DNA of 64,000 nucleotides from assembly GCF_030644225.1 (NCBI RefSeq), contig NZ_CP128650.1, positions 1,436,001-1,500,000 on the forward strand, read 5' to 3'. The stretch is from Selenomonas dianae (GTDB lineage: Bacteria; Bacillota; Negativicutes; Selenomonadales; Selenomonadaceae). Positions 10,805 through 45,287 of the stretch are shown here, piece after piece. The notes below the pieces were generated by a model. That model ran no database searches, had not been told where the DNA came from, and saw only the letters and a program-made list of their open reading frames with translations. The stretch's first letter is position 1. Each line of letters begins with the position of its first letter. A program made the position numbers and the translations under genes.

Positions 10805-10968
10805 GGGAATCGCTGATAAAATGAAGTCCGTCAGATTGGCGTAGATTTTTTCGTCCGAACAAGGAGGCAAACCGGACGCATAGCAAGGGCTATGTGGAGG
10901 ATTTGCCGACACAGTGCGGGCAAAAAAGATGCGTCAAGATGGCGGTGCTGAATTTATCAGCGCTTCCC
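10805..10968. mobile_element. MITE family A, copy 1 (164 bp)
   Basis: The terminal inverted repeats are GGGAATCGCTGATAAA and its near-complement TTTATCAGCGCTTCCC. The interior hairpin arms are GGCAAA (10866-10871) and TTTGCC (10902-10907). No transposase is encoded. The right end abuts the TAA stop of the aldo/keto reductase gene. Confidence 0.85.
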
Positions 10969-11958
<990 letters not shown>

Positions 11959-14176: not shown

Positions 14177-14228
14177 TGGAATGTCCTTTCAGCTTTCCAG
14201 ATTTATGATAAATGTCACGGGAAAATGG

Positions 14229-14401
14229 AGACTGCGATGCTCCTAAGCAAACCCTAGTGGAGTAAGCGGGAAAAGTGCGCGGTACGCCCCGTCGGATTTC
14301 TTTCGTTCAAGCGCAGCGCGTTTAAGAAGTCCGACGGTATTTGAGCGTACAAGCGCACGAACGCTTACGCAACTAAGTGTTTGCGTGGAGCATGCACGTC
14401 T
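14229..14401. repeat. Family B structured repeat, copy 1
   Basis: This copy fills the mtlA-mtlD gap, ending 10 nt from the mtlA stop. The helices are: P1 GCTCC and GCAAAC (14239-14252) with GTTTGC and GGAGC (14379-14391); P2 GTACGC (14282-14287) with GCGTAC (14345-14350); P3 14289-14302 with 14324-14337. The outer stem specific to this locus is AGACTGC (14229-14235) with GCA-c-GTCT (14394-14401). Confidence 0.8.
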
Positions 14402-14411
14402 GTATATTTCC

Positions 14412-16313
14412 TCAATCCGCCTTTGTAAAGACCTCGTAAAGTTCATCGGCACTCTTGGTCTTGAAGAGCTCCGCGATCTGCTCATCCGTGTAGTCGCCGA
14501 CCATGGTCGCAATATTGGCGAGAATCGCAAGGTGGTCGTTGCCGACGCCTGCAATGCCGATGACGAGATGTGCCGTCTCATCGCCGAACTTGACACCCTC
14601 GGGATACTGGCAGACGACGATGCCCGTCTTCTTGATCGTGTCCTTGACCGCATTCTCGCCGTGCGGGATCGCGATGCCCTTGCCGATGTAGGTCGAGAGA
14701 TCCTGTTCGCGGTTGAGCATCCCCTGCACATAGCCCTCGTCGACGTAGCCGCTCGCCACGAGCATCCTGCCCGCTGCCGTGACTGCTTCCTCGCGGCTAA
14801 CGCTCGGGAGACCGACCTTGACATTCTCCTTGAGCAGAACACCCGCACTGATCGTATCGGTCGCCTCAGCCTCGGCATCAGTTGCCGGAGCACCCGCCTC
14901 GACCGCCGCCTCTTTCAGGCGTGTGGTAACAATTTCATAGACATTGTTCTGCGTAAAGTCACGCACCCAGATGTGCTCTGCCTGCGGCGAATCCGCAAGC
15001 GCACGCTCGGCGAGTTTTTCATGTGAGATGACAAGCTGTGCCTCGCCCGGAATTGCGCCGATGGCGCAGTTCGTGACGGAGATGTCCGTATAGCCGTCCT
15101 TCTTAAGTTTCTTGCGGAGTGCCGCCGCACCGAGCGCGGACGAGCCCATGCCCGCGTCGCAGGCGTAGACGATAACCTTCAGATCCTTGCCCGCAACCTT
15201 CTTGTCGGCAGGGAGATCCTTGCCGCGATTCTTCATGTCCGCCATGCTCTCGCGTGCCGACTCAAGAGAATCCTCCTCAACATCCTTCGACATCTTGATA
15301 AAGACAGAGGCAACCGCGCAGGATACCGCTGTCGCAACGGCGAACGCCGAGAGGTTTGCAAAGAGTGCCGAGCCGTTCGGCGTCATGGCGATGATCGCGA
15401 AAATCGAGCCTGGGGAGGACGGTGCAATCAGACCGCCGCCGAGAATACCGAGCGTAAAGACACCGGACATACCGCCCGCAATCGCTGCAACAATGAGCGT
15501 CGGCTTCATGAGGATGTACGGGAAGTAGATTTCGTGGATACCGCCGAGAACGTGAATAATCATCGCACCCGGCGAGGACGACTTTGCCATGCCCTTACCG
15601 AAGAGCCAGTACGCAAGCAGGATGCCGAAACCGGGACCCGGGTTCGCTTCAAGCAGAAAGAACATGGACTTTCCGTATTCTTGCGCCTGCTGAATGCCGA
15701 GCGGACTGAGTACGCCGTGGTTGAGCGCGTTGTTGAGGAAGAGCACCTTTGCCGGCTCGATGATGATGGACGCGAGCGGCAGAAGCCCCATCGCGACGAT
15801 TCCCTCCACGCCGCTGCGCAGGATGTCGTTCGCACCGCCGACCACGGGGCCGACGACGGCGTAGGCGATCATCGCGAGGATGCCGCCGAGAATGCCGAGC
15901 GAGAAGTTGTTGACCAGCATCTCGAAACCGCCCGGGATGCTGTCGCGGATGGCATCGTCAAATTTCTTGATGATGCAGCCGCCAAGAGGACCCATAATCA
16001 TCGCACCGAGGAACATCGGAATATCCGAGCCCGCGATGATGCCCGACGTGGCAATCGCCGCCATGACGCCGCCGCGATGTCCATAGATCGCTGCACCGCC
16101 GCTGTAGCCGATCAGCAGAGGAATCAGCCACTTGCTCATCGGACCGCCGACCTGTGCGAGGTATTCGTTCGGCATCCACCCCGTCGGGATGAACAGCGCC
16201 GTCAGAAACCCCCATGCGATAAATGCGCCGATGTTCGGCATCACCATTCCGGACAGGAAGCGGCCAAATTTCTGCATGGCCTCCTGTGCTCCTCCACCTT
16301 GTGTACTCATCAT
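14412..16313 (-). CDS. mtlA: Mannitol-specific PTS enzyme IICBA
   Basis: This 633-residue membrane transporter imports and phosphorylates mannitol. Residues ~1-340 form the IIC membrane domain (MQKFGRFLSGMVMPNIGAFI; the GGIHEIYFPYILMKP substrate region). Residues ~375-470 form IIB, with phosphocysteine in VIVYACDAGMGSSALG. Residues ~490-633 form IIA, with phosphohistidine in IAIPHGENAVKD. All three domains are fused, as in E. coli. A GAAGGGGG site precedes the tandem ATG codons. It lies 32 nt after mtlR, so the two genes are co-transcribed. Confidence 0.97.
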   Translation of the reverse strand: MMSTQGGGAQEAMQKFGRFLSGMVMPNIGAFIAWGFLTALFIPTGWMPNEYLAQVGGPMSKWLIPLLIGYSGGAAIYGHRGGVMAAIATSGIIAGSDIPMFLGAMIMGPLGGCIIKKFDDAIRDSIPGGFEMLVNNFSLGILGGILAMIAYAVVGPVVGGANDILRSGVEGIVAMGLLPLASIIIEPAKVLFLNNALNHGVLSPLGIQQAQEYGKSMFFLLEANPGPGFGILLAYWLFGKGMAKSSSPGAMIIHVLGGIHEIYFPYILMKPTLIVAAIAGGMSGVFTLGILGGGLIAPSSPGSIFAIIAMTPNGSALFANLSAFAVATAVSCAVASVFIKMSKDVEEDSLESARESMADMKNRGKDLPADKKVAGKDLKVIVYACDAGMGSSALGAAALRKKLKKDGYTDISVTNCAIGAIPGEAQLVISHEKLAERALADSPQAEHIWVRDFTQNNVYEIVTTRLKEAAVEAGAPATDAEAEATDTISAGVLLKENVKVGLPSVSREEAVTAAGRMLVASGYVDEGYVQGMLNREQDLSTYIGKGIAIPHGENAVKDTIKKTGIVVCQYPEGVKFGDETAHLVIGIAGVGNDHLAILANIATMVGDYTDEQIAELFKTKSADELYEVFTKAD

Positions 16314-16345
16314 AATCCCCCTTCTAAAAATAAATTATAACTTGC

Positions 16346-18409
16346 TTACAAGAGCCGTTCGAGACATTCCCGAAAATGCTCTTCCAAAACGTATTCCAAT
16401 TCACTGCGGATCTCCTCTGCGCCACCCTGTACGAGAAGATCTGTGAAGCCGGGACGCTCCGCCATCTGCGCCGCAATATGACCGAAGACGTCTGCCCCCG
16501 CATCATCCTCCTCCGGCGCACACATGACAAGTGCTGCACGGATTGTCCCATCTCCGTAGGGAAACGGCTCTGCAAGGCGCAGAACGCCGAAATGCGGCAC
16601 TCCGGCACACGCAATACGCGCATGGAGGAGAATCGTATGCGGCGCAATAAATGTCGGTGCAATCTGTTCCCGCCGCAGGAGTGCGTCGGCAAAATCCTCC
16701 GCAGCAGCGTCCTCCGACAGGAGAAGATGGGCAGCGGAATGTACCAAAGCCTCCACCGACTGCGCTCCATCGTTCTCCCGCAGGACAAACGTCGAAAGTA
16801 CAGTGGAAACAGCACCACTCAGACGATGAATCTCATCCATTGCCGCCGCAAAGCCCGGCTTCTCCGGCTGCTGCGCCACATGGAGCGGCACACAGTCGGC
16901 AAGCACGGCACTGATGTGCGCGCGGTCGGAAGCCGTCAGAAAAACACTGGCAACGACGACGGGCACGGGGAGCTGCGGCAGCGGAACGGTGGATATGACA
17001 AAATCTGCACCGCGTCTCCTGACCTCCTGTGCCGTAAGCGCAAGAGATGAAATTTCCCCAACGACACGAATTTGTTCATAGACACGTCGGACGCGGCTCG
17101 CGAGCAAGCGGCTCGTCCCCAGCCCCGTGGGACACGTGACAAGCACACGCACGGCGGGACGATCTCCGCCCGCCTCAGTGAGTGCCGCCCCAAGGTGCAT
17201 CGCGATATAGGCAATCTCATCATCGGGAAGGGCTGTCCCTGCCTCCGCCTCCATCATCGAGGCGGCGTGCCGCGCGAGTGCCATCAATTCCGGATGTTCT
17301 TCCTCCATCTGCGCGAGGAGCGGATTGCGGATGTCCATGTGGAGTTTCAGTCGATGCAGTGCGGGGGCAAGATGGTTCACGAGCCCCGAAAGCAAGGTGC
17401 GGCTGCGCTGGAGCGGCGCACCGCTCTGCTCCGCTGCACGCCGCATGATCGACTGTGCGATCTGCACGAGGCGGAAATTATCGACGCGCCCGGTTTCTGC
17501 GGGAAGCGACGTTCCGCGTACACCGAGAAGATGCATCGTGATATAGCCGACCTCCGCCTCCGGCACGGAGAGTGAAAACACCTCCCCCAAACGCACCGCA
17601 ATCATCTGTGCCGCACGGAACTCCTCCGTCCGGCGCAGCTTCGCGAACATCCCCGCATCCATCCGAATCGCATCGCTTTGCTGCATCCGCCGCACGGCAA
17701 GTGCGAGATGAACGACAAGCCCGACACGCGCGGTATCGGGGATATGCCGCCCCCGCGTCTGCGCAGCAACGATCTCGTCAATCGTCCGTACCTGCGTCCC
17801 ATCGACAAACCCCAGCAGAGCTCTGTCCGCCGCTGATGCAGCCCCTTCCCCATCCTCATCGTCGCCGATGAGCGCGAGGAGTTCCTTTTCATCCATGCGG
17901 TCATGGATGCTGCGGACAAGCGCACTGCGGATGTCCCGCTCCGCGCCCTCGACATAGACCCCGAGACCGGGGCGGCGCACAAGCGTAATCCCCTGCTCCG
18001 CAAAAAGCGGCTGAATCCGGTCGAGATCGTGACTGATGGTGCTGTCCGTCACATTCAGAAGCCGCGCAAGCGTAAAGAGTTTCATCGGCTCGTCCGCCAT
18101 GAGGAGACGGCTCGCAAGAACAGAGCGACGCTGATCCGGTGTCAGTTCCTCCTGCGCGTCTTCGTCTGCGGCAAGGCGTTTGCGAAATGCCGCAAGATTT
18201 TCCACGTCACCCGCAAGCATAAAGCCTGCCCCTGTACGTCTGAGGAGGGTAATCCCATGCGGCATAAGAGCCGCCTCCAACCCGTGCATCTCACGCGTAA
18301 CGGTACGCGCACTGACCCCAAGCATGGAGGCTATGCGCTCGGCGGGCGCATAGCCGTCTGCGGTAAGGAGCACGGACAGAATCGCCCGCATACGTGCCGT
18401 CAGTTCCAT
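16346..18409 (-). CDS. mtlR: MtlR-type transcriptional activator (PRD/BglG family)
   Basis: This 687-residue PTS-controlled regulator is expected to activate the mannitol genes. In order it has an N-terminal DNA-binding domain of HTH_11/Mga type (RMRAILSVLLTADGYAPAERIASMLGVSARTVTREM), a second helix-turn-helix (LARLLNVTDSTISHDLDRIQ), two PTS regulation domains with conserved His (RVGLVVHLALAVRRM; EVGYITMHLLG; EIAYIAMHLG), a IIB-like domain (VLVTCPTGLGTSRLL) and a C-terminal IIA-like domain (IAPTFIAPHTILLHA). The ATG at 18409 is chosen because GGGGGCGG lies just upstream; an in-frame ATG at 18535 lies before the -10 element. It is the first gene of the operon. Confidence 0.92.
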   Translation of the reverse strand: MELTARMRAILSVLLTADGYAPAERIASMLGVSARTVTREMHGLEAALMPHGITLLRRTGAGFMLAGDVENLAAFRKRLAADEDAQEELTPDQRRSVLASRLLMADEPMKLFTLARLLNVTDSTISHDLDRIQPLFAEQGITLVRRPGLGVYVEGAERDIRSALVRSIHDRMDEKELLALIGDDEDGEGAASAADRALLGFVDGTQVRTIDEIVAAQTRGRHIPDTARVGLVVHLALAVRRMQQSDAIRMDAGMFAKLRRTEEFRAAQMIAVRLGEVFSLSVPEAEVGYITMHLLGVRGTSLPAETGRVDNFRLVQIAQSIMRRAAEQSGAPLQRSRTLLSGLVNHLAPALHRLKLHMDIRNPLLAQMEEEHPELMALARHAASMMEAEAGTALPDDEIAYIAMHLGAALTEAGGDRPAVRVLVTCPTGLGTSRLLASRVRRVYEQIRVVGEISSLALTAQEVRRRGADFVISTVPLPQLPVPVVVASVFLTASDRAHISAVLADCVPLHVAQQPEKPGFAAAMDEIHRLSGAVSTVLSTFVLRENDGAQSVEALVHSAAHLLLSEDAAAEDFADALLRREQIAPTFIAPHTILLHARIACAGVPHFGVLRLAEPFPYGDGTIRAALVMCAPEEDDAGADVFGHIAAQMAERPGFTDLLVQGGAEEIRSELEYVLEEHFRECLERLL

Positions 18410-18442
18410 CTGTCCGCCCCCTTTCGACCGTTGACATTTTTT

Positions 18443-18471
18443 ATTATAACGAATGGCATTCATATCTGCAA
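18443..18471 (-). promoter_or_regulatory. Promoter of the mtlRAD operon
   Basis: On the minus strand TTGCAG is followed after 17 nt by TATAAT. An 11-bp palindrome, GAATG-g-CATTC (18451-18461), lies within the spacer and may be an operator. Confidence 0.5.
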
Positions 18472-18511
18472 TGAAAAGACCTTGCTCTTTGTCATGAGGA
18501 CTTACGGACAA

Positions 18512-18543
18512 ATAAAAAGAGCCGATGCACCACACATCAGCCC
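18512..18543 (-). terminator. Terminator after tsaD
   Basis: A nine-pair stem (18519-18527 with 18535-18543, including two G-U pairs) is followed leftward by TTTTTATT. Confidence 0.75.
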
Positions 18544-18552
18544 AACATTATT

Positions 18553-19581
18553 TCACTGAAAATCCAGTCCCGGCACGGCATTCAGATAGAGATCGCTGTA
18601 CTTCCCTGCCGCCGCCTGATACGCGCCACGGCAGGCGATCATGGCGGCGTTGTCCGTACACAGGCGCGGCGGCGGATAGAGATAACGCACGCCCTCCGCC
18701 GCTGCCGTCGTACGCAGACGCTTCTCAAGAGCCGCATTCGCCGCGACACCGCCCGCAAGGACGAGCGTATCGCGCCCCGCCGCACGGATCGCCTCGAATG
18801 CCTTGTGGACAAGCACCTCGACGACGGCGGACTGGAACGAGGCGGCAATGTCCGCCTTGTTCAGTTCGTGCCCCTTCATCTTCTCGCTGTTGATGTAGTT
18901 CAGCACGGCCGATTTCAGCCCGCTGAAGCTGAACTCATAGTTCCCCTCCTGTGCGAGTGCACGCGGGAAGTCGATTGCAGAGGGGTCACCCGCACGTGCC
19001 AGTCTGTCGATCTCGGGGCCACCCGGGTACGGCAGCCCCATCACGCGCGCCACCTTGTCAAACGCCTCACCCGCCGCATCGTCGCGCGTCCTGCCCATCT
19101 GACGGAACGTCTCGTAGTCCGCCACATCGACGAGTGCCGTATGTCCTCCCGATACGACGAGAGCCATAAAGGGCGGCGTGAGATCCTCCGTCGCAAGGAA
19201 GTTCGCAAAGATATGCCCCTCCAGATGGTTCACGCCGATGAGCGGAACACCGAGGGAGAACGCAAGGGCTTTCGCCGCCGACACGCCGACGAGAAGTGCC
19301 CCGACAAGCCCCGGCCCATACGTGACGGCGATCTGATCGATGTCCGCAAGCCCGACGTCCGCTTCCTCAAGTGCCTGCTCGACGACGGGCAGGATGCTCA
19401 GGATGTGGTTGCGCGATGCGATCTCGGGCACAACGCCGCCGTATTTCTGATGAATCGGGATCTGCGTCGCGATCACGCACGAGCGCAGGTCGCGTGTCCC
19501 GCGCAGCACCGCCGCCGAGGTTTCGTCACAGCTCGTCTCTATCCCGAGGGTCAGTTTTTCCCGCACATCGTTCATCTGCAA
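18553..19581 (-). CDS. tsaD: tRNA N6-threonylcarbamoyladenosine synthase subunit TsaD
   Basis: TsaD transfers the threonylcarbamoyl group from TC-AMP to A37 of ANN-decoding tRNAs, in a complex with TsaB and TsaE. The 342-residue ASKHA-fold protein starts with LGIETSCDETSAAVLRG. It has the metal-binding HLEGH motif (GVNHLEGHIFANF), GPGLVGALLVG, and the C-terminal nucleotide loops (LVLAGGVAANAALEKRL; CTDNAAMIA). It overlaps rimI by about 55 nt and is the last gene of tsaE-tsaB-rimI-tsaD. All three Tsa complex components are therefore encoded together; TsaC/Sua5 is not in this window. Confidence 0.97.
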   Translation of the reverse strand: MQMNDVREKLTLGIETSCDETSAAVLRGTRDLRSCVIATQIPIHQKYGGVVPEIASRNHILSILPVVEQALEEADVGLADIDQIAVTYGPGLVGALLVGVSAAKALAFSLGVPLIGVNHLEGHIFANFLATEDLTPPFMALVVSGGHTALVDVADYETFRQMGRTRDDAAGEAFDKVARVMGLPYPGGPEIDRLARAGDPSAIDFPRALAQEGNYEFSFSGLKSAVLNYINSEKMKGHELNKADIAASFQSAVVEVLVHKAFEAIRAAGRDTLVLAGGVAANAALEKRLRTTAAAEGVRYLYPPPRLCTDNAAMIACRGAYQAAAGKYSDLYLNAVPGLDFQ

Positions 19582-20026
19582 ATTCCTTTAACTTCGTATG
19601 CCACATCAGGATCGCGTCCTCATCGTTGTCCTGATAGTATTTCTTGCGCACGCCGACTGCCGCAAAGCCCAATCCTTCATAGAGGCGCAGCGCGGGCGTA
19701 TTCGATGGCCGCACTTCGAGCGTCATGCGCTCCACGCCGCGCTCCGCAGCCGCGCACATCAGCTTTTCCATGAGGACTTTACCCAGTCCCCTGCCCCGCT
19801 GCGAAGCGGTCAGTGCGATATTCGTCACCTGCGCTTCCTCGAACGAGATCCAGCAGCCGCCAAAGCCGATGATGTCCGCATCGTCGAGCGCGACGATATA
19901 GTACGCAAACGCATTGGATGCCTCGCGCCAAAAATCCTCACGCGACCACGGTGTCGGAAAACTCTCACGCTCGACAGCAGCCACGCCCTCCGCGTCCTCC
20001 GGCAGCAGTGTACGAAAGTGAATCAC
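19526..20026 (-). CDS. rimI: Ribosomal-protein-S18-alanine N-acetyltransferase
   Basis: This is a 166-residue GNAT acetyltransferase. The acetyl-CoA loop reads QRGRGLGKVLMEKL, preceded by strand QVTNIALTAS and followed by TLEVRPSNTPALRLYEGLGF, the RimI signature. The start is GTG at 20026, not an upstream ATG. GTGA overlaps the tsaB stop, GGAGGGGGC lies just upstream, and homology begins at this point (VIHFRTLLPEDAEGV, with initiator Met). The position between tsaB and tsaD is the standard bacterial arrangement. The C-terminal ~20 residues overlap the start of tsaD. Confidence 0.9.
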   Translation of the reverse strand: MIHFRTLLPEDAEGVAAVERESFPTPWSREDFWREASNAFAYYIVALDDADIIGFGGCWISFEEAQVTNIALTASQRGRGLGKVLMEKLMCAAAERGVERMTLEVRPSNTPALRLYEGLGFAAVGVRKKYYQDNDEDAILMWHTKLKEFADERCAGKTDPRDRDEL

Positions 20027-20742
20027 TGCGCCCCCTCCGCGCCGTGACGTTTCTCCCACAGCACCTCCGCCTCGCTGCGGCGCAGATAGAGCGGCGCGAC
20101 CGTCATGGGATCGTCGTTTTCCCCGCGTGCAAGCCGCGTGAGTGCCGAGAGCCCCACACACGCCGCACGCGGCATACGCGCATGAATCGGCGCAAGTCGT
20201 ACATTTGTGGGCAAAGAAAGCGATATTTTCTTCTGCATGGCATCGCCGAGCAGAAGCACGGGCTGCTCCGTTCCCGCGAGTGAGGCAATAACCTCTGTGA
20301 GTGGCAGAATCGCAAGGGGACTCTCCTCATGAAGGTTCAGCACATCGCCATCTGCACGCCATGTGAACTCCTGCACGTAGACGTTCCCCTTCTGCGCGTC
20401 CATCATAGGCACGAGGCGCATTCCCTCACAGATACAGTGATGGGCAAGCGTCTCAAGTGTCGGTACAGCGATGAGCGGGATGTGCAGGGCATACGCCATC
20501 ATCTTTGCCGCCGCAAGTCCGATGCGCAGCCCCGTGAACGAGCCGGGGCCGATGCTGACGGCAATTCCCCCGAGTTCAGATTTTTCCACACGTGCCATGC
20601 GGAGCACCGTCTCGATGTGCGGCATCAACGTTTCCGAGTGGGTCAACGCGCCTTGCATAGAGATCTCTGCCGCGACGCGCTCCGCTGAGAGGACGGCGAC
20701 GCTTGAAACCTGTGAGGAGGTATCAATGCTCAGGATCGACAA
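20023..20742 (-). CDS. tsaB: tRNA threonylcarbamoyladenosine complex subunit TsaB
   Basis: TsaB is the inactive ASKHA-fold partner that dimerises with TsaD. The 239-residue protein begins MSILSIDTSSQVSSVAVL and contains the family core AVSIGPGSFTGLRIGLAAAKMMAYAL. The metal-binding His of TsaD is absent, as expected. The C-terminal part (APLYLRRSEAEVLWEKRH) is the usual TsaB tail. It overlaps tsaE by 20 nt and rimI by 4 nt, which implies coupled translation. Confidence 0.95.
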   Translation of the reverse strand: MSILSIDTSSQVSSVAVLSAERVAAEISMQGALTHSETLMPHIETVLRMARVEKSELGGIAVSIGPGSFTGLRIGLAAAKMMAYALHIPLIAVPTLETLAHHCICEGMRLVPMMDAQKGNVYVQEFTWRADGDVLNLHEESPLAILPLTEVIASLAGTEQPVLLLGDAMQKKISLSLPTNVRLAPIHARMPRAACVGLSALTRLARGENDDPMTVAPLYLRRSEAEVLWEKRHGAEGAQ

Positions 20743-21199
20743 TCTCGCTCAACTCCTCCAACAATGCCGTGCTCAACTCGCCCTCGGCGGCAAAGGTAAA
20801 CTGCCGCTGCTCCTCGCCGAGTGCCGCAATGTTTACCTGCAGACGGTCATCCGGCATCGCATCGGGGAATTTCTCCGCCCACTCGATCAGCACAATGCCC
20901 TCCGTCGCTTCCGCATATTCATAGAAGCCGATTTCCTCCAGTTCCTCCTCGGATGCGATCCGATAGAGGTCAAAATGCACAATGGGACATGCCGCCTCGT
21001 AGATATTCATGAGGTTAAATGTCGGGCTCGTCACATCGCTCTCCACGCCGAGCGTCCGCGCGAGAGCACGTACAAAGAGGGTCTTGCCCACACCAAGTTC
21101 TCCATCGAGGCAGATCACCGTCCCCTCGTGGATGATTTTACCGATCGTTCCCGCTAAATGCGCAGTCTCCTCAGGCGATTGCGTGATACAGGTGAGCAT
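20723..21199 (-). CDS. tsaE: tRNA threonylcarbamoyladenosine complex ATPase TsaE
   Basis: This 158-residue P-loop ATPase promotes turnover of the TsaBD complex. Walker A reads GELGVGKTLFVRALAR, followed by the switch-like SPTFNLMNIY. HFDLYRI and the VLIEWAEKFPD strand complete the family pattern. It is the first gene of the t6A operon, with its own promoter at 21244-21272. Confidence 0.95.
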   Translation of the reverse strand: MLTCITQSPEETAHLAGTIGKIIHEGTVICLDGELGVGKTLFVRALARTLGVESDVTSPTFNLMNIYEAACPIVHFDLYRIASEEELEEIGFYEYAEATEGIVLIEWAEKFPDAMPDDRLQVNIAALGEEQRQFTFAAEGELSTALLEELSEIVDPEH

Positions 21200-21243
21200 A
21201 TTCCGTCCCCTTTTATTATGAAGAAAATAGAACCTTTGGATAC

Positions 21244-21272
21244 ATTATAGCACGAACGTCCTTGTTTCGCAA
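21244..21272 (-). promoter_or_regulatory. Promoter of tsaE-tsaB-rimI-tsaD
   Basis: On the minus strand TTGCGA is followed after 17 nt by a perfect TATAAT (plus-strand 21244-21249), about 45 nt upstream of tsaE. Confidence 0.6.
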
Positions 21273-21315
21273 AAAAAGAAAAAGCGGCGCGGAGAGAGGT
21301 TCTCCCCGTCCGCCT
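21271..21315 (-). terminator. Terminator after rimM
   Basis: A GC-rich stem-loop (around 21284-21315) is followed leftward by TTTTTCTTTTTTT. Its T tract overlaps the -35 region of the tsaE promoter. Confidence 0.7.
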
Positions 21316-21321
21316 GTCCAC

Positions 21322-21831
21322 CTATTCCGGCAGCCGCACCGTCATGCGTCCGCCTGCCACATCAATCGCTCGTACGACCTTTCGCAGGGCGGGGATGAGG
21401 ATTTCACGCCCGTCCTCACTGCGCACAGCGTACACATCGTTGCTGCCCGTCCGAAGAACATCCTCGACCGTGCCGAGCTCGTTATCCTCCTCATCGCAGA
21501 CCGTCAGTCCCACGATGTCAAAGACATAATACTCGCCCTCGTCGAGCGGTGCCGCCTCCGCGCGTGCGACCGTGAGCAGCCGTCCCGTAAGTTTCTGCGC
21601 GTCCTCGCGGACAGCGTACTCACGAAAGCGCATGAGAAAGTTCTTCCCCTGCGGACGTGCGCTCTCGACGTGCAGGAGTTCATCGCCCACCATGACCTCG
21701 CGCAGCGCAGCGAACCGCTCGGGAAAATCCGTCAGCGGAATCACGCGCAGATCGCCATGAATCCCGTGTGCCGCGCCGACGCGCCCGATAATAATGCGCC
21801 CCTTAGGAGCGGATTGCGACAATCTTGTCAT
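21322..21831 (-). CDS. rimM: 16S rRNA processing / 30S maturation factor RimM
   Basis: RimM assists maturation of the 30S head around S19. The 169-residue protein has the N-terminal barrel (IIIGRVGAAHGIHGDLRVIPLTDFPERF) and the C-terminal PRC barrel (EYYVFDIVGLTVCDEEDNELGTVEDVLRTGSNDVYAV; ILIPALRKVVRAID). It overlaps ylqD by 29 nt. In most Firmicutes trmD and rplS follow immediately; here a terminator and the tsa operon follow instead, so the cluster is broken after rimM. Confidence 0.96.
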   Translation of the reverse strand: MTRLSQSAPKGRIIIGRVGAAHGIHGDLRVIPLTDFPERFAALREVMVGDELLHVESARPQGKNFLMRFREYAVREDAQKLTGRLLTVARAEAAPLDEGEYYVFDIVGLTVCDEEDNELGTVEDVLRTGSNDVYAVRSEDGREILIPALRKVVRAIDVAGGRMTVRLPE

Positions 21832-22213
21832 CCTCCACCAGAATCTCGACGTTCATCAGCTCGCGCATATCGTCGCCGACCTTCGCCTCGACCTGACGCT
21901 CAAGCGTTCCCTGCACGATCTCTGCACCCTCGACGAACTTTTGCAGTTCCTCGCGATGTGCCGTCGTCTCCTCGATATAGTCGAGGCGGCGCTGACGCTC
22001 CTGCCGAATCGCATTGATGTGCTGAATCGCCTGCGGTGTCAGCTCCCCCTGTTCCGCCTCCTGCATGACGCGCTTCTCTTGGATGCCGAGCTGCTGTACC
22101 TCAAGCTCCGCACGGCTGAGACCTTCCTCCATCTCCTTGAGCATCTTCGCACGCAGCTTTTCCGTCAGCTTTGCCTTGACGGTGACAGGCACTTTAATCG
22201 AAATAGAATCCAC
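21803..22213 (-). CDS. ylqD: YlqD-family protein
   Basis: This 136-residue protein is encoded between khpA and rimM, as in Bacillus. The N-terminal stretch SISIKVPVTVKAKLTEKL and the C-terminal NVEILVEDDKIVAIRS form beta-rich ends around a long helical, Glu/Gln/Arg-rich middle (about residues 25-95) likely to form a coiled coil. Its molecular role is unknown; constant linkage with ribosome-assembly genes suggests a part in translation or rRNA handling. A terminator and a MITE remnant separate it from khpA, so it and rimM probably form a separate transcript. Confidence 0.8.
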   Translation of the reverse strand: MDSISIKVPVTVKAKLTEKLRAKMLKEMEEGLSRAELEVQQLGIQEKRVMQEAEQGELTPQAIQHINAIRQERQRRLDYIEETTAHREELQKFVEGAEIVQGTLERQVEAKVGDDMRELMNVEILVEDDKIVAIRS

Positions 22214-22243
22214 TCTGTATCTCTCCTATTGCAATCCATATGC

Positions 22244-22277
22244 AAAAACGGCGACCGTCCGAGACGCACGCCGTTTT
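22244..22277 (-). terminator. Terminator between khpA and ylqD
   Basis: AAAAACGGCG (22244-22253) pairs with CGCCGTTTT (22269-22277), with Ts following leftward. Confidence 0.75.
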
Positions 22278-22281
22278 CATA

Positions 22282-22308
22282 GGAATCGCTGAATTTATCA
22301 GTGCTTCC
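22282..22308. mobile_element. MITE family A, collapsed derivative (27 bp)
   Basis: Only the two family A ends remain (GGAATCGCTGA joined to ATTTATCAGTGCTTCC), flanked on both sides by TA (22280-22281 and 22309-22310). The interior is deleted. It lies 8 nt beyond the khpA stop codon. Confidence 0.75.
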
Positions 22309-22315
22309 TATAGGC

Positions 22316-22543
22316 TCAGCCGATCTCGACCGTTGCCCTCTTATTCTCCTTCGTCGCGGCAGCTTTGACAACACTGCGGAGCGCCTTTGCAATGCGCCCC
22401 TGCTTGCCGATGACCTTGCCCATGTCATCCTCTGCCACACGAAGCCTCAAAATGACCTCCTGGTCATCCTGCGTTTCGTCAACGACGACAGCTTCCGGAT
22501 GATCCACCAAGGATTTTGCGATAACCTCGACTATCTCTTTCAC
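22316..22543 (-). CDS. khpA: KH-domain RNA-binding protein KhpA
   Basis: This 75-residue single KH-domain protein (formerly YlqC) forms a dimer with KhpB in other Firmicutes and binds many RNAs. The KH GxxG loop reads VIGKQGRIAKALRSVVKAA, near residues 44-62. It follows rpsP in the usual order. The ORF covers the full family length. Confidence 0.93.
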   Translation of the reverse strand: MKEIVEVIAKSLVDHPEAVVVDETQDDQEVILRLRVAEDDMGKVIGKQGRIAKALRSVVKAAATKENKRATVEIG

Positions 22544-22631
22544 GCCGGTCGTCTCTCCTCATCGCAATACGTACGCCGCGAGAGACTCCTCCACCACAGT
22601 GGAAGAATCTTTCGTATGCGTACAGTATGTG

Positions 22632-22907
22632 TCAGTCCTTCTGACGCTTTGCCTCGGCGAATTTCGCCATCGTACCGTTCTTGCTCAGGATGTTCCTGAC
22701 CGTGTCGGTCGGCTGTGCGCCCTTCTTCATCCAGTCGATTGCCTTGTCCTCGTCAATGCTGACGAGGGCGGGCTGCTTCGACGGATCGTAGTTTCCAAGG
22801 ATCTCGATGAATCGACCATCACGCGGTGCACGCGAGTCGGCGACCACAATGCGATAAAAGGGATTCTTCTTCGCGCCCATGCGGTTCAAACGAATCTTGA
22901 CTGCCAT
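22632..22907 (-). CDS. rpsP: 30S ribosomal protein S16
   Basis: This 91-residue protein binds 16S rRNA in the 5' domain. The sequence [20 protein letters not shown], then [22 protein letters not shown], is the S16 signature. GAAAGGTGGTG precedes the ATG. It lies 30 nt after ffh in the ylxM-ffh-rpsP-khpA unit. Confidence 0.98.
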
Positions 22908-22937
22908 AATTTCACCACCTTTCGTTGTGCTGCATTA

Positions 22938-24314
22938 CTATTTGAAGAACGGCATCTTCGGAAGCCCCATGCCGCCGAGCGACGGCATCGAGGGCATTCC
23001 GCCCCTGCCCTTCATCTTCTTCATTTTCTTCATCATCTTGCGCATCTCGCCGAACTGCTTGAGCAGCTTGTTCACGTCCTGCACGCGCGTTCCGCTGCCC
23101 GCTGCGATGCGCTTGCGGCGGCTGCCGTTGATGATGGTGATGTCCGCGCGCTCCTTCGGTGTCATCGCGCGGATGATCGCCTCAAGTTGGCGCATCTCCC
23201 TGCCGTCGAGGTCAAACTCCTGATCGCCGAGCTTCTTTTTGAGATTGCCCATCCCCGGGATCATGCCGAGGATGCTGTTCAATGAACCAAGTTTCTTGAC
23301 CTGCTGCAGCTGATCGAGGAAGTCGTCGAGCGTGAAATCATTCTTGCGGAGCTTCGCCTCCATCTTTTTCGCGTTTTCGAGGTCGAAGTTCTCCTGTGCC
23401 TTCTCCACGAGCGAGAGCACATCGCCCATGCCAAGGATGCGCGATGCCATGCGGTCAGGGTGGAACACTTCAAGCGGTTCGAGCTTTTCGCCCATACCAA
23501 CGAATTTCACAGGGCGCCCCGTGACCGCTCTGATTGAGAGTGCAGCACCGCCACGTGCGTCGCCATCGAGTTTCGTCATGATAACGCCGTCGAGCCCGAG
23601 CGATTTGTCGAAAGCCTCGGCGACATTCACGGCCTCCTGCCCCGTCATGGCATCCACAACGAGCAGAATCTCATGCGGTTTTACCGCCGCCTTGATGTCG
23701 CGCAGCTCCTGCATGAGCGTTTCGTCGATCTGCAAGCGTCCCGCCGTGTCGATGATGACAACATCGTTCGCGTGCGAGGAGGAGTGTGCGATTGCCGCGC
23801 GTGCGATGGCGACGGCATCCTCCTGTCCCTGCGAAAAGACAGGCACTTCGACCTTTTCACCGATGACTTCAAGCTGCTTGATCGCGGCGGGGCGATAGAT
23901 GTCGTCCGCCACGAGCAGCGGACGCTTGCCCTGTTTCTTCAGCATGAGCGCGAGCTTGCCCGCCGAGGTAGTCTTACCCGAGCCCTGGAGCCCCACAAGC
24001 ATGATGACGGTCGGCGGGTTCGGGCTGATGTTCAGGCGGCTCTCCGTCCCGCCCATCAGCGCGGTCAGTTCCTCGTCAACGATCTTGATAACCGCCTGTG
24101 CCGCCGTGAGTGTGTCGAGCACCTCCTGTCCGACGGCACGCTCTTTGACGCGCTTTACAAAGTCCTTGACGACCTTAAAGTTCACATCCGCTTCGAGGAG
24201 TGCCATCCGCACCTCGCGCATGGCATCGCTCACATCGTCCTCGGTCAGCTTGCCATGTCCGCGCAGCTTCTTGAAGATCCCCTGCAAACGATCGGACAGA
24301 TTCTCAAAGATCAT
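22938..24314 (-). CDS. ffh: Signal recognition particle protein Ffh
   Basis: Ffh binds signal sequences of nascent membrane proteins and, with 4.5S RNA and FtsY, targets them to the membrane. The 458-residue protein has an N domain (residues ~1-90), a GTPase G domain (G1 GLQGSGKTTSAGKL; DTAGRLQID; TKLDGDARGGAAL) and a C-terminal methionine-rich M domain (GMIPGMGNLKKKLG; the MRKMMKKMKKMKGRGG tail). Its start overlaps the stop of ylxM (ATGA). Confidence 0.98.
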   Translation of the reverse strand: MIFENLSDRLQGIFKKLRGHGKLTEDDVSDAMREVRMALLEADVNFKVVKDFVKRVKERAVGQEVLDTLTAAQAVIKIVDEELTALMGGTESRLNISPNPPTVIMLVGLQGSGKTTSAGKLALMLKKQGKRPLLVADDIYRPAAIKQLEVIGEKVEVPVFSQGQEDAVAIARAAIAHSSSHANDVVIIDTAGRLQIDETLMQELRDIKAAVKPHEILLVVDAMTGQEAVNVAEAFDKSLGLDGVIMTKLDGDARGGAALSIRAVTGRPVKFVGMGEKLEPLEVFHPDRMASRILGMGDVLSLVEKAQENFDLENAKKMEAKLRKNDFTLDDFLDQLQQVKKLGSLNSILGMIPGMGNLKKKLGDQEFDLDGREMRQLEAIIRAMTPKERADITIINGSRRKRIAAGSGTRVQDVNKLLKQFGEMRKMMKKMKKMKGRGGMPSMPSLGGMGLPKMPFFK

Positions 24315-24676
24315 TCTCCCACCTCCTTCGTATCCTCCTGTGATGTGTATTGTTCCAGTTCGTCCGCGATGCGGCGCACGTCAGCGCACGTAATTGGTTC
24401 TCTGAGTGCACGCAACTTTGCACAGACGGCAGTAAGTGCCTGCTCCTGTGCCTGTTGACGCGCAAGGAGCCCAAGCGTCTCCTCCATCTCCGTAAGCGCA
24501 CGCTCGGCACGGCGGATATTGTCATGCGCCGCCTGTCGCGTGATACCGAGCTCCTCGCCGATCTCCGCGAGGGAGAAGTCCTCCGCGATGTGCAGACGCA
24601 GACTCTCCCGCTGCTTTCCCGTGAGAAGCCCGCCGTAGAGATCATACAGTCTTGCGAGGTAATAGAGCCGCTCCAT
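24311..24676 (-). CDS. ylxM: YlxM family SRP-associated helix-turn-helix protein
   Basis: This is a 121-residue protein of the UPF0122/YlxM family, encoded directly before ffh as in most Firmicutes. It is mostly helical and carries a sigma-70 region-4-like helix-turn-helix (LTGKQRESLRLHIAEDFSLAEIGEELGITRQAAHDNIRRAE, ~residues 18-58). It may modulate SRP function; direct DNA binding is unproven. I chose the ATG at 24676 because AGGTG sits 6 nt upstream and the family begins with MERLYYLARLYDLYG; ATG (24682) and GTG (24685) codons upstream are alternatives. Confidence 0.9.
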   Translation of the reverse strand: MERLYYLARLYDLYGGLLTGKQRESLRLHIAEDFSLAEIGEELGITRQAAHDNIRRAERALTEMEETLGLLARQQAQEQALTAVCAKLRALREPITCADVRRIADELEQYTSQEDTKEVGE

Positions 24677-24772
24677 GCACATCACCTGTTTCTAAACACT
24701 GTTGCGATTATAACGGCAAACGAAAAGCCTGTCAAGTATTTTTCTTGACAGACTGAGTTGTGTGGTTGAAAT

Positions 24773-24942
24773 GTGGCATGTCCCCCAAAGCGAACCCTAG
24801 TGGAGCAAGGGAGTAAAGTGCGCGGTATGCCCCGGCGGATTTCTTTCGTTCAAGCGAAGCGCGTTTAAGAAGTCCGCCGGTATTTAAGCATACAAGCGCA
24901 CGAACGTTTGCGCAACGAGGTGTTCGCGTGGGGGATTGCCAC
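24773..24942. repeat. Family B structured repeat, copy 2
   Basis: This copy lies 11 nt beyond the stop of the DUF438 gene. P1: TCCCCC and GCGAAC (24781-24795) with GTTCGC and GGGGGA (24922-24935). P2: GTATGC (24825-24830) with GCATAC (24888-24893). P3: 24832-24845 with 24867-24880. Outer stem: GTGGCA (24773-24778) with TGCCAC (24937-24942). Every arm differs from copy 1 at several bases, yet pairing is kept. Confidence 0.8.
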
Positions 24943-24953
24943 AATTCCAATAT

Positions 24954-26399
24954 TTAGCGACGAAACTTTTCCAGTGGTTCTGCGTGGTCGGTCACGAACT
25001 CGACCGTGCCGATGTACTCGCCCGCCGCATCGTACATCGCCTGATAGTGCACGCGGATCGGACGCTCGCGGATGTAGCGGTGCACAATCATCTGCGTGCG
25101 CTTCTTCGCCTTGAAGTCGGCGATCAGATTCCGCACCACGGGGATGATCTCGGGCGGATGGCAGTTGAGTACGTCGCGGCCGAGTGCAGACAGCGGGCGC
25201 GTAAAGACCTGCCCCTCGTTCGTGAAGAAACGGACGACATCATCCTTGTCGATGAACGTGATGTCCACGGGCAGGAGCTGAAGGATCGTCGTCAGCTGCT
25301 CCATCGAGAGCTCGCCCGTCGGGAACTGGAGCTTCCCATCCACCTGCGGGCGTGCAAGGCGCTCCGCCTCTTGATCGAGCCACGGCTGCGCCTCCGCCCA
25401 TGCGGGAATCGGAACGCCGAACGAGATCCCCATATCCGGCAGGTCATGATAGCAGCGATACCATTCCATCGGCGTGAAATAACGCAGGCTGAGCGGGAAG
25501 AGAATCTTCTCCTCCTTGAAGATCATCTCGCGAATGCGCTGCACGAGTGCACGGATCCGTGCCTCGTACAGCGGCAGCGTCTCTGCATCCGCCTTGAGTG
25601 CCTTGATCATCATGGCGAGCTCGCGCTTCATCTCATCGTCGATGCCCCACATGACCTGCGAGGGTCCCGTGACACCGTAGTCGTAGAGAATCGGCATCAG
25701 CAGCTCTTCCTTCTTGATGTAGTGGGAGCGCACATCACCGAGCGCGAGAATGTGCCGGAGCATGACATCCGTACGCTTTGCGCCGTCCAACTCGTCCGCA
25801 ATCGTATCGAGCAGCGCGTCGAGTGCCGTATTCTCCGCACGCAGAATTGTGAGCGGATGCCCCTCGGGCAGCTCGTCGATGTCGTCGGGACTTACCGAAG
25901 CCGCCTGTGCGTGAATCTCGTCATGCGAGAGCGCACCCGCCGGCGGCTCGCTCGCCACACCGTGAAAGAGTGCCGAATGCACGTCGCAGAGACGCTGTAC
26001 CTCTGTGATCGGCATCCCCTCCTTGATGAGCGTCTGCTCCGCATCCATAATCTCCTGTGCCTCAACGTGACTGAACTCCTGCACGAAATCCGCACGGACG
26101 GCATCGAGATCCTCGCCGCCCGACAGGCGTTCGATGAAGTTCCGAATGCGTCCCTGCCGCGACTGTACATCATCGCTGATAACTCGGTAGCCACGCTCCT
26201 CGAACGCCGCGATGACCTTCGAGAGCTCGATCCCCTTCACTGCCGCGCCGCGCGGAATCGTCATGATGCGTCCCATCACGTTCAGCGCAACGGGATTCGT
26301 AATCTCCTGAAAGCCGATCCCCGCCATGATCTCGCTGACTTCGGGATTCTCCTCCACCAGCTCGGCGACCGTCTTTTTCAGATCGAGTACCTTTTCCAT
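24954..26399 (-). CDS. DUF1858/DUF438-hemerythrin-PAS sensor protein
   Basis: This is a 481-residue soluble protein of the DUF438 family. Residues ~1-70 form a DUF1858-like domain (LDLKKTVAELVEENPEVSEIMAGIGF; a second helix pair near PRGAAVKGIELSKVIAAFEERGY). DUF438 follows (~85-150). A hemerythrin-like four-helix region (~170-320) is His/Glu-rich (HILALGDVRSHYIKKEELLMPIL; MWGIDDEMKRELAMMIKA; EKILFPLSLRY), suited to a di-iron O2 or NO site. The C-terminal PAS domain (~365-480) reads LPVDITFIDKDDVVRFFTNE ... NCHPPEIIPVVRNLIADF. No DNA-binding or kinase domain is present, so output is unknown. Relatives are thought to help anaerobes deal with O2 or NO. It is a single gene. Confidence 0.88.
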   Translation of the reverse strand: MEKVLDLKKTVAELVEENPEVSEIMAGIGFQEITNPVALNVMGRIMTIPRGAAVKGIELSKVIAAFEERGYRVISDDVQSRQGRIRNFIERLSGGEDLDAVRADFVQEFSHVEAQEIMDAEQTLIKEGMPITEVQRLCDVHSALFHGVASEPPAGALSHDEIHAQAASVSPDDIDELPEGHPLTILRAENTALDALLDTIADELDGAKRTDVMLRHILALGDVRSHYIKKEELLMPILYDYGVTGPSQVMWGIDDEMKRELAMMIKALKADAETLPLYEARIRALVQRIREMIFKEEKILFPLSLRYFTPMEWYRCYHDLPDMGISFGVPIPAWAEAQPWLDQEAERLARPQVDGKLQFPTGELSMEQLTTILQLLPVDITFIDKDDVVRFFTNEGQVFTRPLSALGRDVLNCHPPEIIPVVRNLIADFKAKKRTQMIVHRYIRERPIRVHYQAMYDAAGEYIGTVEFVTDHAEPLEKFRR

Positions 26400-26502
26400 G
26401 GGTTCTCTCCTTTATCTATATTATCGTACATCATCATCTCTGTGTGACGATTATAACGCAGAACGGTGAAGAAAGGCTGTAACCTTTGGTACGGAAACAC
26501 AG

Positions 26503-26536
26503 AAAAAGGACTGTCCCCGAAGAAACAGTCCTTTTT
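26503..26536 (-). terminator. Terminator after clpB
   Basis: AAAAAGGACTGT (26503-26514) and ACAGTCCTTTTT (26525-26536) form a perfect 12-bp stem with flanking T tract, 9 nt beyond the clpB stop. Confidence 0.93.
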
Positions 26537-26544
26537 CGTCTATG

Positions 26545-29121
<2,577 letters not shown>

Positions 29122-29156
29122 GTGTCCCTCCATCGAATATTTGTCTTTATGAACCC

Positions 29157-29184
29157 ATTATAGCAGTTAAAGTCAAAAAGTCAA
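29157..29184 (-). promoter_or_regulatory. clpB promoter
   Basis: On the minus strand TTGACT is followed after 16 nt by a perfect TATAAT (plus-strand 29157-29162), about 36 nt upstream of the ATG. Confidence 0.7.
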
Positions 29185-29209
29185 ATACTTTCTTTGATTT
29201 TTTGACTTT
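29169..29209. promoter_or_regulatory. clpB operator, CtsR-like palindrome
   Basis: AAAGTCAAAAAGTCAAA (29169-29185) faces TTTGATTTTTTGACTTT (29193-29209). This is a 17-bp inverted repeat with one mismatch and a 7-bp spacer, overlapping the -35 box. Each arm holds two GTCAAA-like direct heptads. The heptad resembles the CtsR half-site, but the internal spacing (1 bp) differs from the usual 3 bp. Confidence 0.6.
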
Positions 29210-29291
29210 TATTTTTCAGAAAAGGCTTCGACGAAAATTCGACGAAGCCACAACTGCCTAATTCTGTGATAACTATTATGAAAGAATACGA

Positions 29292-29576
29292 GCTACGATG
29301 CTCCTAAGCAAACCCTAGTGGAGCAAGCGAGAAAATACTGACCTGTCCAAGAAGCAAGTCCGCAGGACAAAGCTGATTGGGTAACAGGTCGCATGGGAAA
29401 ACGTCCCAAGAACACGAGCGTTAGCGACGTGTGATTGGATGACGTTGACCGCTTGCGCGGTACGCCCCGTCGGATTTCTTTCGTTCAAGCGAAGCGCGTT
29501 TAAGAAGTCCGACGGTATTTGAGCGTACAAGCGCACGAACGCTTGCGCAACTAAGTGTTTGCGTGGAGCACGTAGC
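29292..29576. repeat. Family B structured repeat, copy 3 (long form with extra domain)
   Basis: This copy lies 27 nt beyond the glnA stop. P1: 29299-29313 with 29557-29570. P2: 29460-29465 with 29523-29528. P3: 29467-29480 with 29502-29515. Outer stem: GCTACG (29292-29297) with CGTAGC (29571-29576). Compared with copies 1 and 2 it has ~117 extra bases (about 29336-29452) with their own helices, for example GACCTGT/ACAGGTC, GGGA/TCCC and ACACG/CGTGT. Confidence 0.8.
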
Positions 29577-32324: not shown

Positions 32325-33248
32325 ATGAACATTTCCATACGCATCGTACAGCTAAAAGGCAGGACATACGAGCTTGCCCGTCGTTTTCCCGCTGCCGTTT
32401 TCTGGCAGACGGTTCTGTTCCTCGTCGGCGCAGCGGCGATCCTCCTGCGCCCCGATGACAGCGCATGGTATGCTGAGAACAACGTCCTTTTCGAGCATCT
32501 CATGCGCCTCATGCCCGCCATCTTCGCCGCATGGCTGACGGCGGCGGCGTGCCGCCTCCTCACCGAACTTTGCCCCGTGAAAAGCCCCTTGCTGCTGAGT
32601 GGCGCGTGCTCCGGCGTTCTGTTTGCCCTGCTCGCATACATATGGTACGGCGTAGCGATGCCGAGCAGACACCTCGTCATCGGGACAGAGGGCGTGTGCC
32701 TTGCACTCGCATTCCTCGCCCTCTTTCTCCTCGAACGCATCAACAGAGCGCCGGGACTCCCCGCCCTCCTCTTTGCCGTAGGCTTTTCCCTCGGAACGAG
32801 CATCCTGTTCTTCCTCGGACTGGTACTCTGCACCGCCGCCTTTTGGTCGCTGATCGTCACCGATGCCGCCCCATGGATAACAGAGACCTCCTATTGGTTC
32901 GCCGGACTGATCGCCTATGGTGCTTGGGGACTCGGCGCATTCCTCGGCACACTGCCAAAGGCGGACGCTCCCCACCTGCTTTCAGCCACCGAACAAAAGA
33001 TACTCCTCTACCTCTTTTTCCCCGTCTATCTTCTGCTGCTTCTCGTCCTCTACCTCTACGTCGGCAAGATCATCGGCGCAGGCGAGATGCCCGTCGGCAC
33101 AATGAATTGGTACGCCTCGTTCGCCCTTCTCGGCTTTACCTTATTGCCGTCAGTCGAGCCGAGGACGGCTCTATCGTCTGGGACAGTGCAAGCGGATTTG
33201 TACTCATACGTTAGGGAAGCACTGATAAATTCAGCGCCGCCATCTTGA
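32325..33248 (+). pseudogene. DUF4153-like membrane protein, 3' end lost at a MITE
   Basis: About 295 residues remain of a polytopic membrane protein resembling the N-terminal half of DUF4153 proteins (usually ~550-600 residues). At least seven hydrophobic segments are visible, up to EMPVGTMNWYASFALLGFT. After that the reading frame gives non-membrane sequence (SVEPRTALSSGTVQADLYSYV), then runs into MITE copy 2, whose DNA supplies the last ~11 codons and the stop. The C-terminal half is not found downstream. The gene is therefore truncated, probably by a deletion or frameshift plus the MITE. The ATG at 32325 has AGAGG 9 nt upstream. Confidence 0.7.
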
Positions 33249-33377: not shown

Positions 33378-33433
33378 TAGAAAGCACTCCCCTGTTCAAT
33401 CCGTGCGATCGTGCCGTGTTATCAGCGATACCC

Positions 33434-45162: not shown

Positions 45163-45287
45163 CTCTCTGCTGTGGAGGGAGCACCTTGCCCCCTAGAATG
45201 ACTCCTTTCTAATTTATATGGAAAAGAACCCGTCGGCTCTCTGCCAACGGGTTCTTTTCGTATGTATCAGCGACATTTCTTTTCTTA

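What the first reader, a model, noticed from the sequence alone, without database searches (positions are those of the whole stretch)
14229..29576. Family B: a structured intergenic element with compensatory changes in every helix
Three copies (14229-14401, 24773-24942, 29292-29576) share one fold. Between copies 1/3 and copy 2 paired positions change together. P3: CCGTCGG with CCGACGG becomes CCGGCGG with CCGCCGG. P2: GTACGC with GCGTAC becomes GTATGC with GCATAC. P1: GCAAAC with GTTTGC becomes GCGAAC with GTTCGC, and GCTCC with GGAGC becomes TCCCCC with GGGGGA. The internal loop between the two P1 parts stays 3x2 in all copies. Such covariation is the usual sign of a selected RNA structure, or of a hairpin DNA element corrected arm against arm. 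I know no named class with this form.
Basis: seen in the sequence. Interest (0 to 1): 0.82.

Follow-up and report, generated by a model that had tools for sequence, protein, structure and literature searches.

The report
Mobile hairpin repeats of selenomonad bacteria
The three odd stretches are copies of a small non-coding DNA element, repeated dozens of times in this genome and in relatives, whose long hairpin shape is kept while many of its letters change; the shape-keeping is real, but what the hairpin does is unknown.

Summary
In detail: the three copies share one rod-like hairpin and the quoted paired changes are there. The family is far larger: 56 apical motifs in this genome and matches in 17 of 60 genomes searched (own included), all in one bacterial family. 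On 58 non-redundant copies 97.2% of pair cells are standard pairs and 26 of 45 pairs change on both sides. Other genera keep tip and loops but have other stems. Outer arms are private to each copy yet complementary.

It is a dispersed, non-coding intergenic hairpin with empty sites in relatives. Some copies lie inside ISL3-type MITEs with 8-bp duplications; copy 1 keeps a relic of such an end. The extra part of copy 3 is a separate repeat nested in it.

No Rfam family matches. Covariation does not by itself prove an RNA: copies point equally both ways relative to genes, one is flipped in place, and DNA template switching can do both. New variant of a known kind; the private arms are unexplained.

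The parts
14229..14401 (+). rod hairpin copy 1 with its arms (covariance-model match 14235-14391)
   Evidence: 182.4 bits
14304..14323 (+). conserved apical tip of copy 1
   Evidence: 0 mismatches
14202..14221 (+). relic of an ISL3-type MITE end outside copy 1
   Evidence: G000:C1:1450202-1450221, 3 mismatches to the end motif
24773..24942 (+). rod hairpin copy 2 (model match 24778-24934)
   Evidence: 177.3 bits
24847..24866 (+). conserved apical tip of copy 2
   Evidence: 0 mismatches
24766..24778 (+). left private arm of copy 2 (TTGAAATGTGGCA); absent from the empty site in relatives
24937..24950 (+). right private arm of copy 2 (TGCCACAATTCCAA)
29292..29576 (+). rod hairpin copy 3 with private arms GCTACG/CGTAGC and the nested insert (model match 29412-29569 for the part 3' of the insert)
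   Evidence: 101.7 bits
29336..29452 (+). nested insert of copy 3, about 117 nt (GACC...GACC at 29340-29450), two hairpins each CCAAGA...GATTGG; ends approximate
29482..29501 (+). conserved apical tip of copy 3
   Evidence: 0 mismatches

Best explanation
Family B is a non-coding, non-autonomous mobile hairpin element, found here only in one bacterial family (Selenomonadaceae, by inference): a single rod of about 160 nt with a conserved tip (CGTTCAAGCGNAGCGCGTTT) and an ordered set of conserved internal loops, closed by outer arms private to each copy. SHOWN: many dispersed copies; empty sites in relatives; patchy distribution; compensatory change within a genus and different stems between genera; private complementary arms; a subset carried in ISL3-type MITEs with 8-bp duplications. 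INFERRED: what counts for spread or persistence is the folded single strand (ssDNA or RNA), recognised through tip and loops by an unknown host or transposon factor, so that stem letters are free and pairing matters. INFERRED: template switching at replication supplies many of the paired changes and flips rods in place; copies that still fold are the ones that persist and spread. Function in the host is open: copies sit mostly between co-directional genes and their cores mostly diverge less than their flanks, so a secondary effect on mRNA, as proposed for ERIC and NEMIS, is possible.
For: 56 tips in G000. Model R1 matches 17 of 60 genomes (own included), 6 of 45 genera, all in family f1; exact tip in 32 of 380 genomes of the class, 8 of 102 genera, 9 of 22 genomes in genus g16. 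97.2% of cells paired, 326 double-change cells against 98 +/- 11 shuffled and 11-40 with slid partners. R1, built on this genus, gives 45 matches at E<=1 in 33 loci of other genera, best 5.6e-28, 39 of 45 over positions 1-158 (the loci were fetched by the tip). Arms: own duplex sum -701.7 against a lowest of -537.0 in 10,000 permutations, 57 copies; other genera: median longest perfect arm run 15 bp against 5 for swapped partners, 32 rods. Empty sites. ISL3 vehicle: exact 8-bp duplications read by eye in 6 of 15 rows; a similar end beside ISL3 transposase genes (one end found only). Flip: L008 against L114, 2 of 158 core differences. 46 of 56 copies between co-directional genes. Core less diverged than flanks in 11 of 12 same-locus pairs.
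Against: No factor that recognises or moves the rod was found. Copies outside ISL3 MITEs show no shared ends, and I could define no target duplication for them, so their way of moving is unknown. PF01610 is absent from 8 element-bearing genomes of the 41 searched. Fetching by tip or BLAST favours intact copies, so the low core divergence may be partly selection of what I looked at. In the 8 least diverged same-locus pairs none of 15 stem changes is double, and 11 involve a non-standard pair in one copy, which does not look like selection for pairing in resident copies; the 8 kept double changes come from two more diverged pairs. G.U exceeds A.C overall (61 against 20 cells) but not among states seen once (11 against 10), so strand-specific selection is weakly supported.
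Confidence: 0.6

Rival explanations
1. A structured RNA with a host function: the rod is transcribed with its operon or from its own promoter and acts on mRNA processing or stability (RNase III or RNase E sites) or as a small RNA; compensatory change is ordinary selection on the RNA.
For: Strong covariation; 46 of 56 copies between co-directional genes, copy 1 between a PTS gene and a mannitol dehydrogenase gene; core less diverged than flanks in 11 of 12 same-locus pairs; G.U over A.C on one strand in both orientations (13:2 and 15:2). ERIC and NEMIS are reported to affect mRNA (PMC2229807).
Against: Orientation to genes is 23 to 23, although tip and loops are strand-specific. Resident copies take pair-breaking changes. 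Many sister species lack the copy at a given locus. No expression data.
Confidence: 0.25
2. No selection for the fold: a palindromic repeat kept self-complementary only by template switching between its arms.
For: Private matching arms; 173 double changes against 87 new non-Watson-Crick states between nearest copies; in-place flip. Template switching homogenises arms and inverts spacers (PMC8604942, abstract and passages).
Against: Unpaired loops and tip stay at fixed places and keep their letters across genera; arm correction alone would erase them. At close range changes are single, not paired.
Confidence: 0.12
3. An ordinary ISL3-type MITE family: the rod is just its inside, and copies without ISL3 ends are decayed ones.
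For: ISL3-type ends and 8-bp duplications around rods in G005 and G006; end motif at 11 places in G000; ISL3 transposase gene in G000, G005, G006, G011; rodless MITEs of the same ends.
Against: Many copies have intact private arms but no such ends; private arms are not expected of decay; element-bearing genomes without PF01610; arms are longest in G034, where I saw no such ends.
Confidence: 0.15

Closest known systems
NEMIS / Correia elements (Neisseria)
   Same: small, intergenic, hairpin-forming, MITE-like; a shorter form and a longer form with an internal extra sequence (PMC2229807, abstract and first part of section 5 read)
   Different: here stems differ between genera while loops and tip stay, the outermost arms are private to each copy, and the inner extra sequence is a repeat of its own found in other hosts
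ERIC (RU-1) and YPAL (RU-2)
   Same: 127-bp and 168-bp intergenic repeats of enterobacteria (sizes from the abstract of PMC2759123 in a listing); ERIC lies in transcripts and affects mRNA (PMC2229807; the YPAL section was not read)
   Different: no cross-genus replacement of stems or private arms is described in what I read
ISL3-type MITEs
   Same: a subset of copies has ISL3-like inverted ends and 8-bp duplications
   Different: many copies lack these ends; the rod itself is not known to me as part of an ISL3 element
RUP (pneumococcus)
   Same: about 107 bp, about 108 intergenic copies, moved in trans by an insertion-sequence transposase on indirect evidence (PMC2229807)
   Different: RUP uses shared terminal repeats of IS630-Spn1; rods have private arms
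integron attC sites
   Same: recalled, from no call: structure-recognised imperfect hairpins with variable stems
   Different: no cassettes or integron integrase were looked for or seen; conserved part here is the tip and loops

Membership tests
MITE-like small mobile palindromic repeat | short, non-coding, many dispersed intergenic copies | tested here: met
   56 tips in G000; mostly intergenic by a simple gene caller, 3 of 56 overlapping a called frame
MITE-like small mobile palindromic repeat | filled and empty orthologous sites | tested here: met
   window copy 2: empty in 5 of 6 genomes whose two flanks came in one fetched locus; further loci
MITE-like small mobile palindromic repeat | terminal inverted repeats shared by all copies | tested here: not met
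   outer arms are private to each copy; shared ends only in the ISL3-type subset
ISL3-type MITE | ends like an ISL3 element and 8-bp target duplication (family features recalled) | tested here: inconclusive
   met for a subset (6 of 15 rows with exact 8-bp duplications); not seen for many other copies
REP/REPIN with RAYT (Y1_Tnp) | Y1_Tnp gene in element-bearing genomes | tested here: not met
   PF01797 absent from G000, G005, G011, G012; 8 matches in G013, which has no element
Rfam RNA family | match at the gathering score | tested here: not met
   window: only a tRNA; copy 3 alone: best E 1.7
structured functional RNA | statistically significant covariation with relatedness modelled | not testable with these tools
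   column shuffles 0 of 500 on five measures do not model relatedness; R-scape not available
structured functional RNA | transcribed product | not testable with these tools
   no expression data

The most novel reading that the evidence does not exclude
A distinct kind of mobile element: a hairpin whose tip and internal loops are its only inherited identity and which gets new, perfectly matched arms (runs of up to 28 bp) at new sites by snap-back copying, so that each copy carries a private barcode stem; it would spread as a folded single strand, not through shared terminal repeats.
Probability: 0.22. Interest if true: 0.85.

Novelty: new variant of a known kind. Interest (0 to 1): 0.62.

Why it matters
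It is a natural case in which strong covariation, usually taken as proof of a functional RNA, may come largely from mobile-element biology and DNA-level arm correction. Dozens of copies per genome, with same-locus pairs in sister species, make it possible to measure how paired changes arise: through intermediates, through double events, or through flips. The private arms have no place in the usual MITE scheme, where all copies share their terminal repeats.

Tried and rejected
REP/RAYT or IS200-type movement: Y1_Tnp (PF01797) is absent from G000, G005, G011 and G012, which are rich in the element, and has 8 matches in G013, which has none. Known RNA family: only a tRNA in the window at gathering scores; for copy 3 alone MIR1222 (E 1.7) and bxd_4 (E 7.4). 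Phage or plasmid cargo: no exact tip in viral contigs; no BLAST match of copy 1 in 72,556 plasmid and 50,697 phage records. Simple terminator: 5 of 56 copies lie between convergent genes and orientation is 23 to 23. Insertion into existing palindromes as source of the arms: the empty sites at the loci of window copy 2, L013, L022 and L028 do not hold the arms. Arms copied from the target: L286 (G004) against L291 (G008) looks like X-rod-X' beside X alone, but G006 (L358) has a rod with nearly the same left arm, so a deletion in G008 is as likely. A first alignment of 126 copies was distorted by truncated copies and not used.

Rows dropped. Of 113 type-I copies, 64 remained after filters and a 93% identity cut; six truncated or doubled ones were left out by hand before A1 (58 rows); one more truncated row was dropped (57 rows). 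A2 holds 40 of the 58, chosen by hand. One search used 7 of the 12 same-locus pairs; the five others, more diverged or flipped, were added. One search used 33 of the 45 matches (the rest duplicates or partial), one of them too near a contig end.

Full report
What is there. The window lies at 1436001-1500000 of a 2,391,311-bp single-contig genome, G000. BLAST with copy 1 gives 43 matches in the same genome, a lower bound since 40 of 70 candidates were scored. The 20-nt apical motif CGTTCAAGCGNAGCGCGTTT has 36 forward and 20 reverse matches with up to one mismatch, 0 for the reversed control. In 17 of the first 30 copies both of my anchors were found: 14 are 120 nt apart and 3, window copy 3 among them, 237 nt.

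Covariation. On 58 non-redundant copies (A1) RNAalifold gives 45 pairs, 26 with a kept double change. With that structure named, 97.2% of cells are standard pairs, against 86.2% for shuffles within columns and 26-46% with partners slid by 1-3 columns; double-change cells are 326 against 98 (sd 11) and 11-40. Some pairs switch with no intermediate seen, e.g. GC 33 / AU 25 and UA 30 / CG 27. Helix 3 and the apical helix have no double change. Shuffling does not model relatedness. Between nearest copies, 173 pairs differ by a double change and 87 by a new non-Watson-Crick state (48 G.U, 17 A.C, 22 other).

Private arms. Outside the consensus structure the two flanks of a copy pair with each other. 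The summed duplex energy of own arms is -701.7 kcal/mol; the lowest of 10,000 permutations of partners is -537.0 (57 copies). In other genera this is stronger: in 32 rods the longest perfect arm run has median 15 bp (range 5-28) against 5 for swapped partners, of which 23 of 992 reach 9.

Other genera. There the stems are different but the tip is the same and the internal loops are recognisably alike, e.g. GCGTBAAGAA opposite TTTAGC and an ATTA-like stretch on the 3' side (read by eye). A covariance model from this genus (R1) gives 45 matches at E<=1 over 33 loci of other genera, best 5.6e-28, 39 of 45 over positions 1-158. The loci were fetched by the tip, so part of each score is built in; but several matches lie beside the fetched one and lack the exact tip, notably in G034 and G161, where rods stand as inverted pairs. 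R1 matches 17 of 60 genomes (own included), all in the window's family, 6 of 45 genera. The exact tip is in 32 of 380 genomes of the class, 8 of 102 genera, and in 9 of 22 genomes of genus g16. G002 and G013, of the same genus as the window, have none.

Movement. At the site of window copy 2 the two flanks came in one locus for six genomes: empty in five (G001, G002, G009, G012, G013) and an internally deleted rod in G007; in G004 unrelated genes lie there. Empty orthologous sites were also read for L007, L010, L013, L022, L024 and L028. In the copy-2, L013, L022 and L028 cases the arms are absent from the empty site. A subset of copies lies between inverted ends like GG[C/T]TCT[A/T]TG..ATGTTACGGA; exact 8-bp duplications outside them were read by eye in 6 of 15 rows (L140 GAAATTCA, L312 TCTCTTTC, L325 GAAATCGT, L326 AAAAGTTT, L339 TAAAATTG, L341 CTGTTTTT). 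Beside an ISL3 transposase gene (PF01610) in G005 stands GGCTCTTTGTCAAATGTTGTGGA, and in G000 GGCTCTTTGTCAATAGTTGTGGA; only one end was found in each. Window copy 1 keeps a relic of this end at 14202-14221 (three mismatches). So ISL3-type MITEs are one vehicle; PF01610 is not found in 8 element-bearing genomes of the 41 searched (G003, G004, G007, G009, G010, G012, G016, G022), and many copies show no such ends.

Flips and shared loci. Among 171 elements, 45 pairs share both flanks (pairs at one locus are counted repeatedly), 20 of them in opposite orientation. In many of those shown the sequence next to the rod is unrelated, so they look like separate insertions into the same intergenic region. 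L008 (G000) and L114 (G005) are a clear flip: same flanks, opposite rod, 2 of 158 core positions different. Template switching between inverted repeats is reported to homogenise arms and invert spacers (PMC8604942, abstract and passages) and to leave compensatory changes in RNA genes (PMC8794818, abstract, opening text and outline).

Resident copies. In seven same-locus pairs the core differs at 21 of 1106 positions (1.9%), near sequence at 94 of 963 and flanks at 611 of 5708. With five more diverged or flipped pairs added, core is 89 of 1894 and flanks 909 of 7548, core lower in 11 of 12. Fetching by tip or BLAST favours intact copies, so this is suggestive only. In the first eight pairs, 15 stem changes are single, 11 of them with a non-standard pair in one copy, none double; the eight kept double changes occur in L025/L120 (6) and L196/L310 (2). 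L022/L280 shows one further double change in place, GTACGC/GCGTAC to GTGCGC/GCGCAC.

Orientation and neighbours. With a simple codon-usage gene caller, 23 copies lie sense and 23 antisense between co-directional genes, 5 between convergent and 4 between divergent genes, 1 undetermined. Sense (17) and antisense (14) copies of A1 are equally paired, with G.U over A.C 13:2 and 15:2; over all 57 rows the ratio is 61:20, but 11:10 for states seen once. Copy 1 lies between a PTS gene (EIIC, IIB, EIIA domains) and a mannitol dehydrogenase gene, copy 2 between a DUF438/hemerythrin/PAS gene and a YlxM-like gene, copy 3 between a glutamine synthetase and a ClpB-like gene; all six run on the minus strand.

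The insert of copy 3. L022 in G000 and its orthologue L280 in G012 share flanks and arms, but L280 carries the insert; L112 (G011) and L154 (G004) are a second such pair by flanks. The insert motif GACCTGTCCAAGAAGCAAGTCCG is found with up to 3 mismatches in 13 of 60 genomes, 23 times in G005 and 4 times in G042, of another family. Of 31 matches read in 30 loci, 11 are in a rod and 20 are not; many of the latter sit inside a different palindrome (CTTCCACCGC...GCGGTCCCCCTCCCCCG). It has two hairpins, each CCAAGA...GATTGG. It is thus a nested repeat of its own; the longer NEMIS also differs from the shorter by an internal 50 bp (PMC2229807).

Comparison. NEMIS, ERIC and RUP are small intergenic repeats regarded as MITEs, some with reported mRNA effects (PMC2229807, abstract and first part of section 5). 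Family B is like these in size, place and mobility. It differs in that fold, loops and tip, not stems, are shared between genera, and in the private matching arms. A survey of stem-loop families in 40 genomes (PMC2267715, abstract and outline) does not contain the words Selenomonas, Negativicutes, Veillonella, compensatory or covari-. Literature searches listed nothing I could recognise as this element; mostly listings were seen, and subscription journals are mostly not held.

Verdict. Real and well beyond chance; a new variant of a known kind; way of spread and function open.

Noticed in passing
window 10805-10974, 33214-33383, 45221-45695 (tandem), 63191-63426: A second repeat family with ends like GGGAAGCACTGATAAATTCAG...CTGAATTTATCAGTGCTTCCC; in several loci (L005, L179, L191, L235, L240) a sequence with these ends abuts or cuts a rod, so it may insert into rods.
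   Followed up: partly
window 29336-29452; L367-L396: The nested insert is an independent two-hairpin repeat (CCAAGA...GATTGG twice, perhaps tandem G.A pairs) found in rods, in another palindrome family and in a genome of another family.
   Followed up: partly
L277, L278, L296, L369, L375, L384: A third intergenic palindrome family in the genus (GCGCCCCTTCCACCGC...CCCCCTCCCCCG...), often host to the nested insert.
   Followed up: no
L138, L186, L202, L206, L212, L218, L224 (G034), L329 (G161), L185 (G022): In other genera rods stand as divergent inverted pairs some 75-300 bp apart; no gene was looked for between them.
   Followed up: partly
L345, L347, L350, L352, L355: Short ISL3-ended MITEs without a full rod; at least L345 and L347 keep rod ends and look like internal deletions.
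   Followed up: partly
L021, L115, L195, L290, L320: The same intergenic region holds rods in five species, with different neighbouring sequence and orientation, which hints at repeated use of the site.
   Followed up: partly
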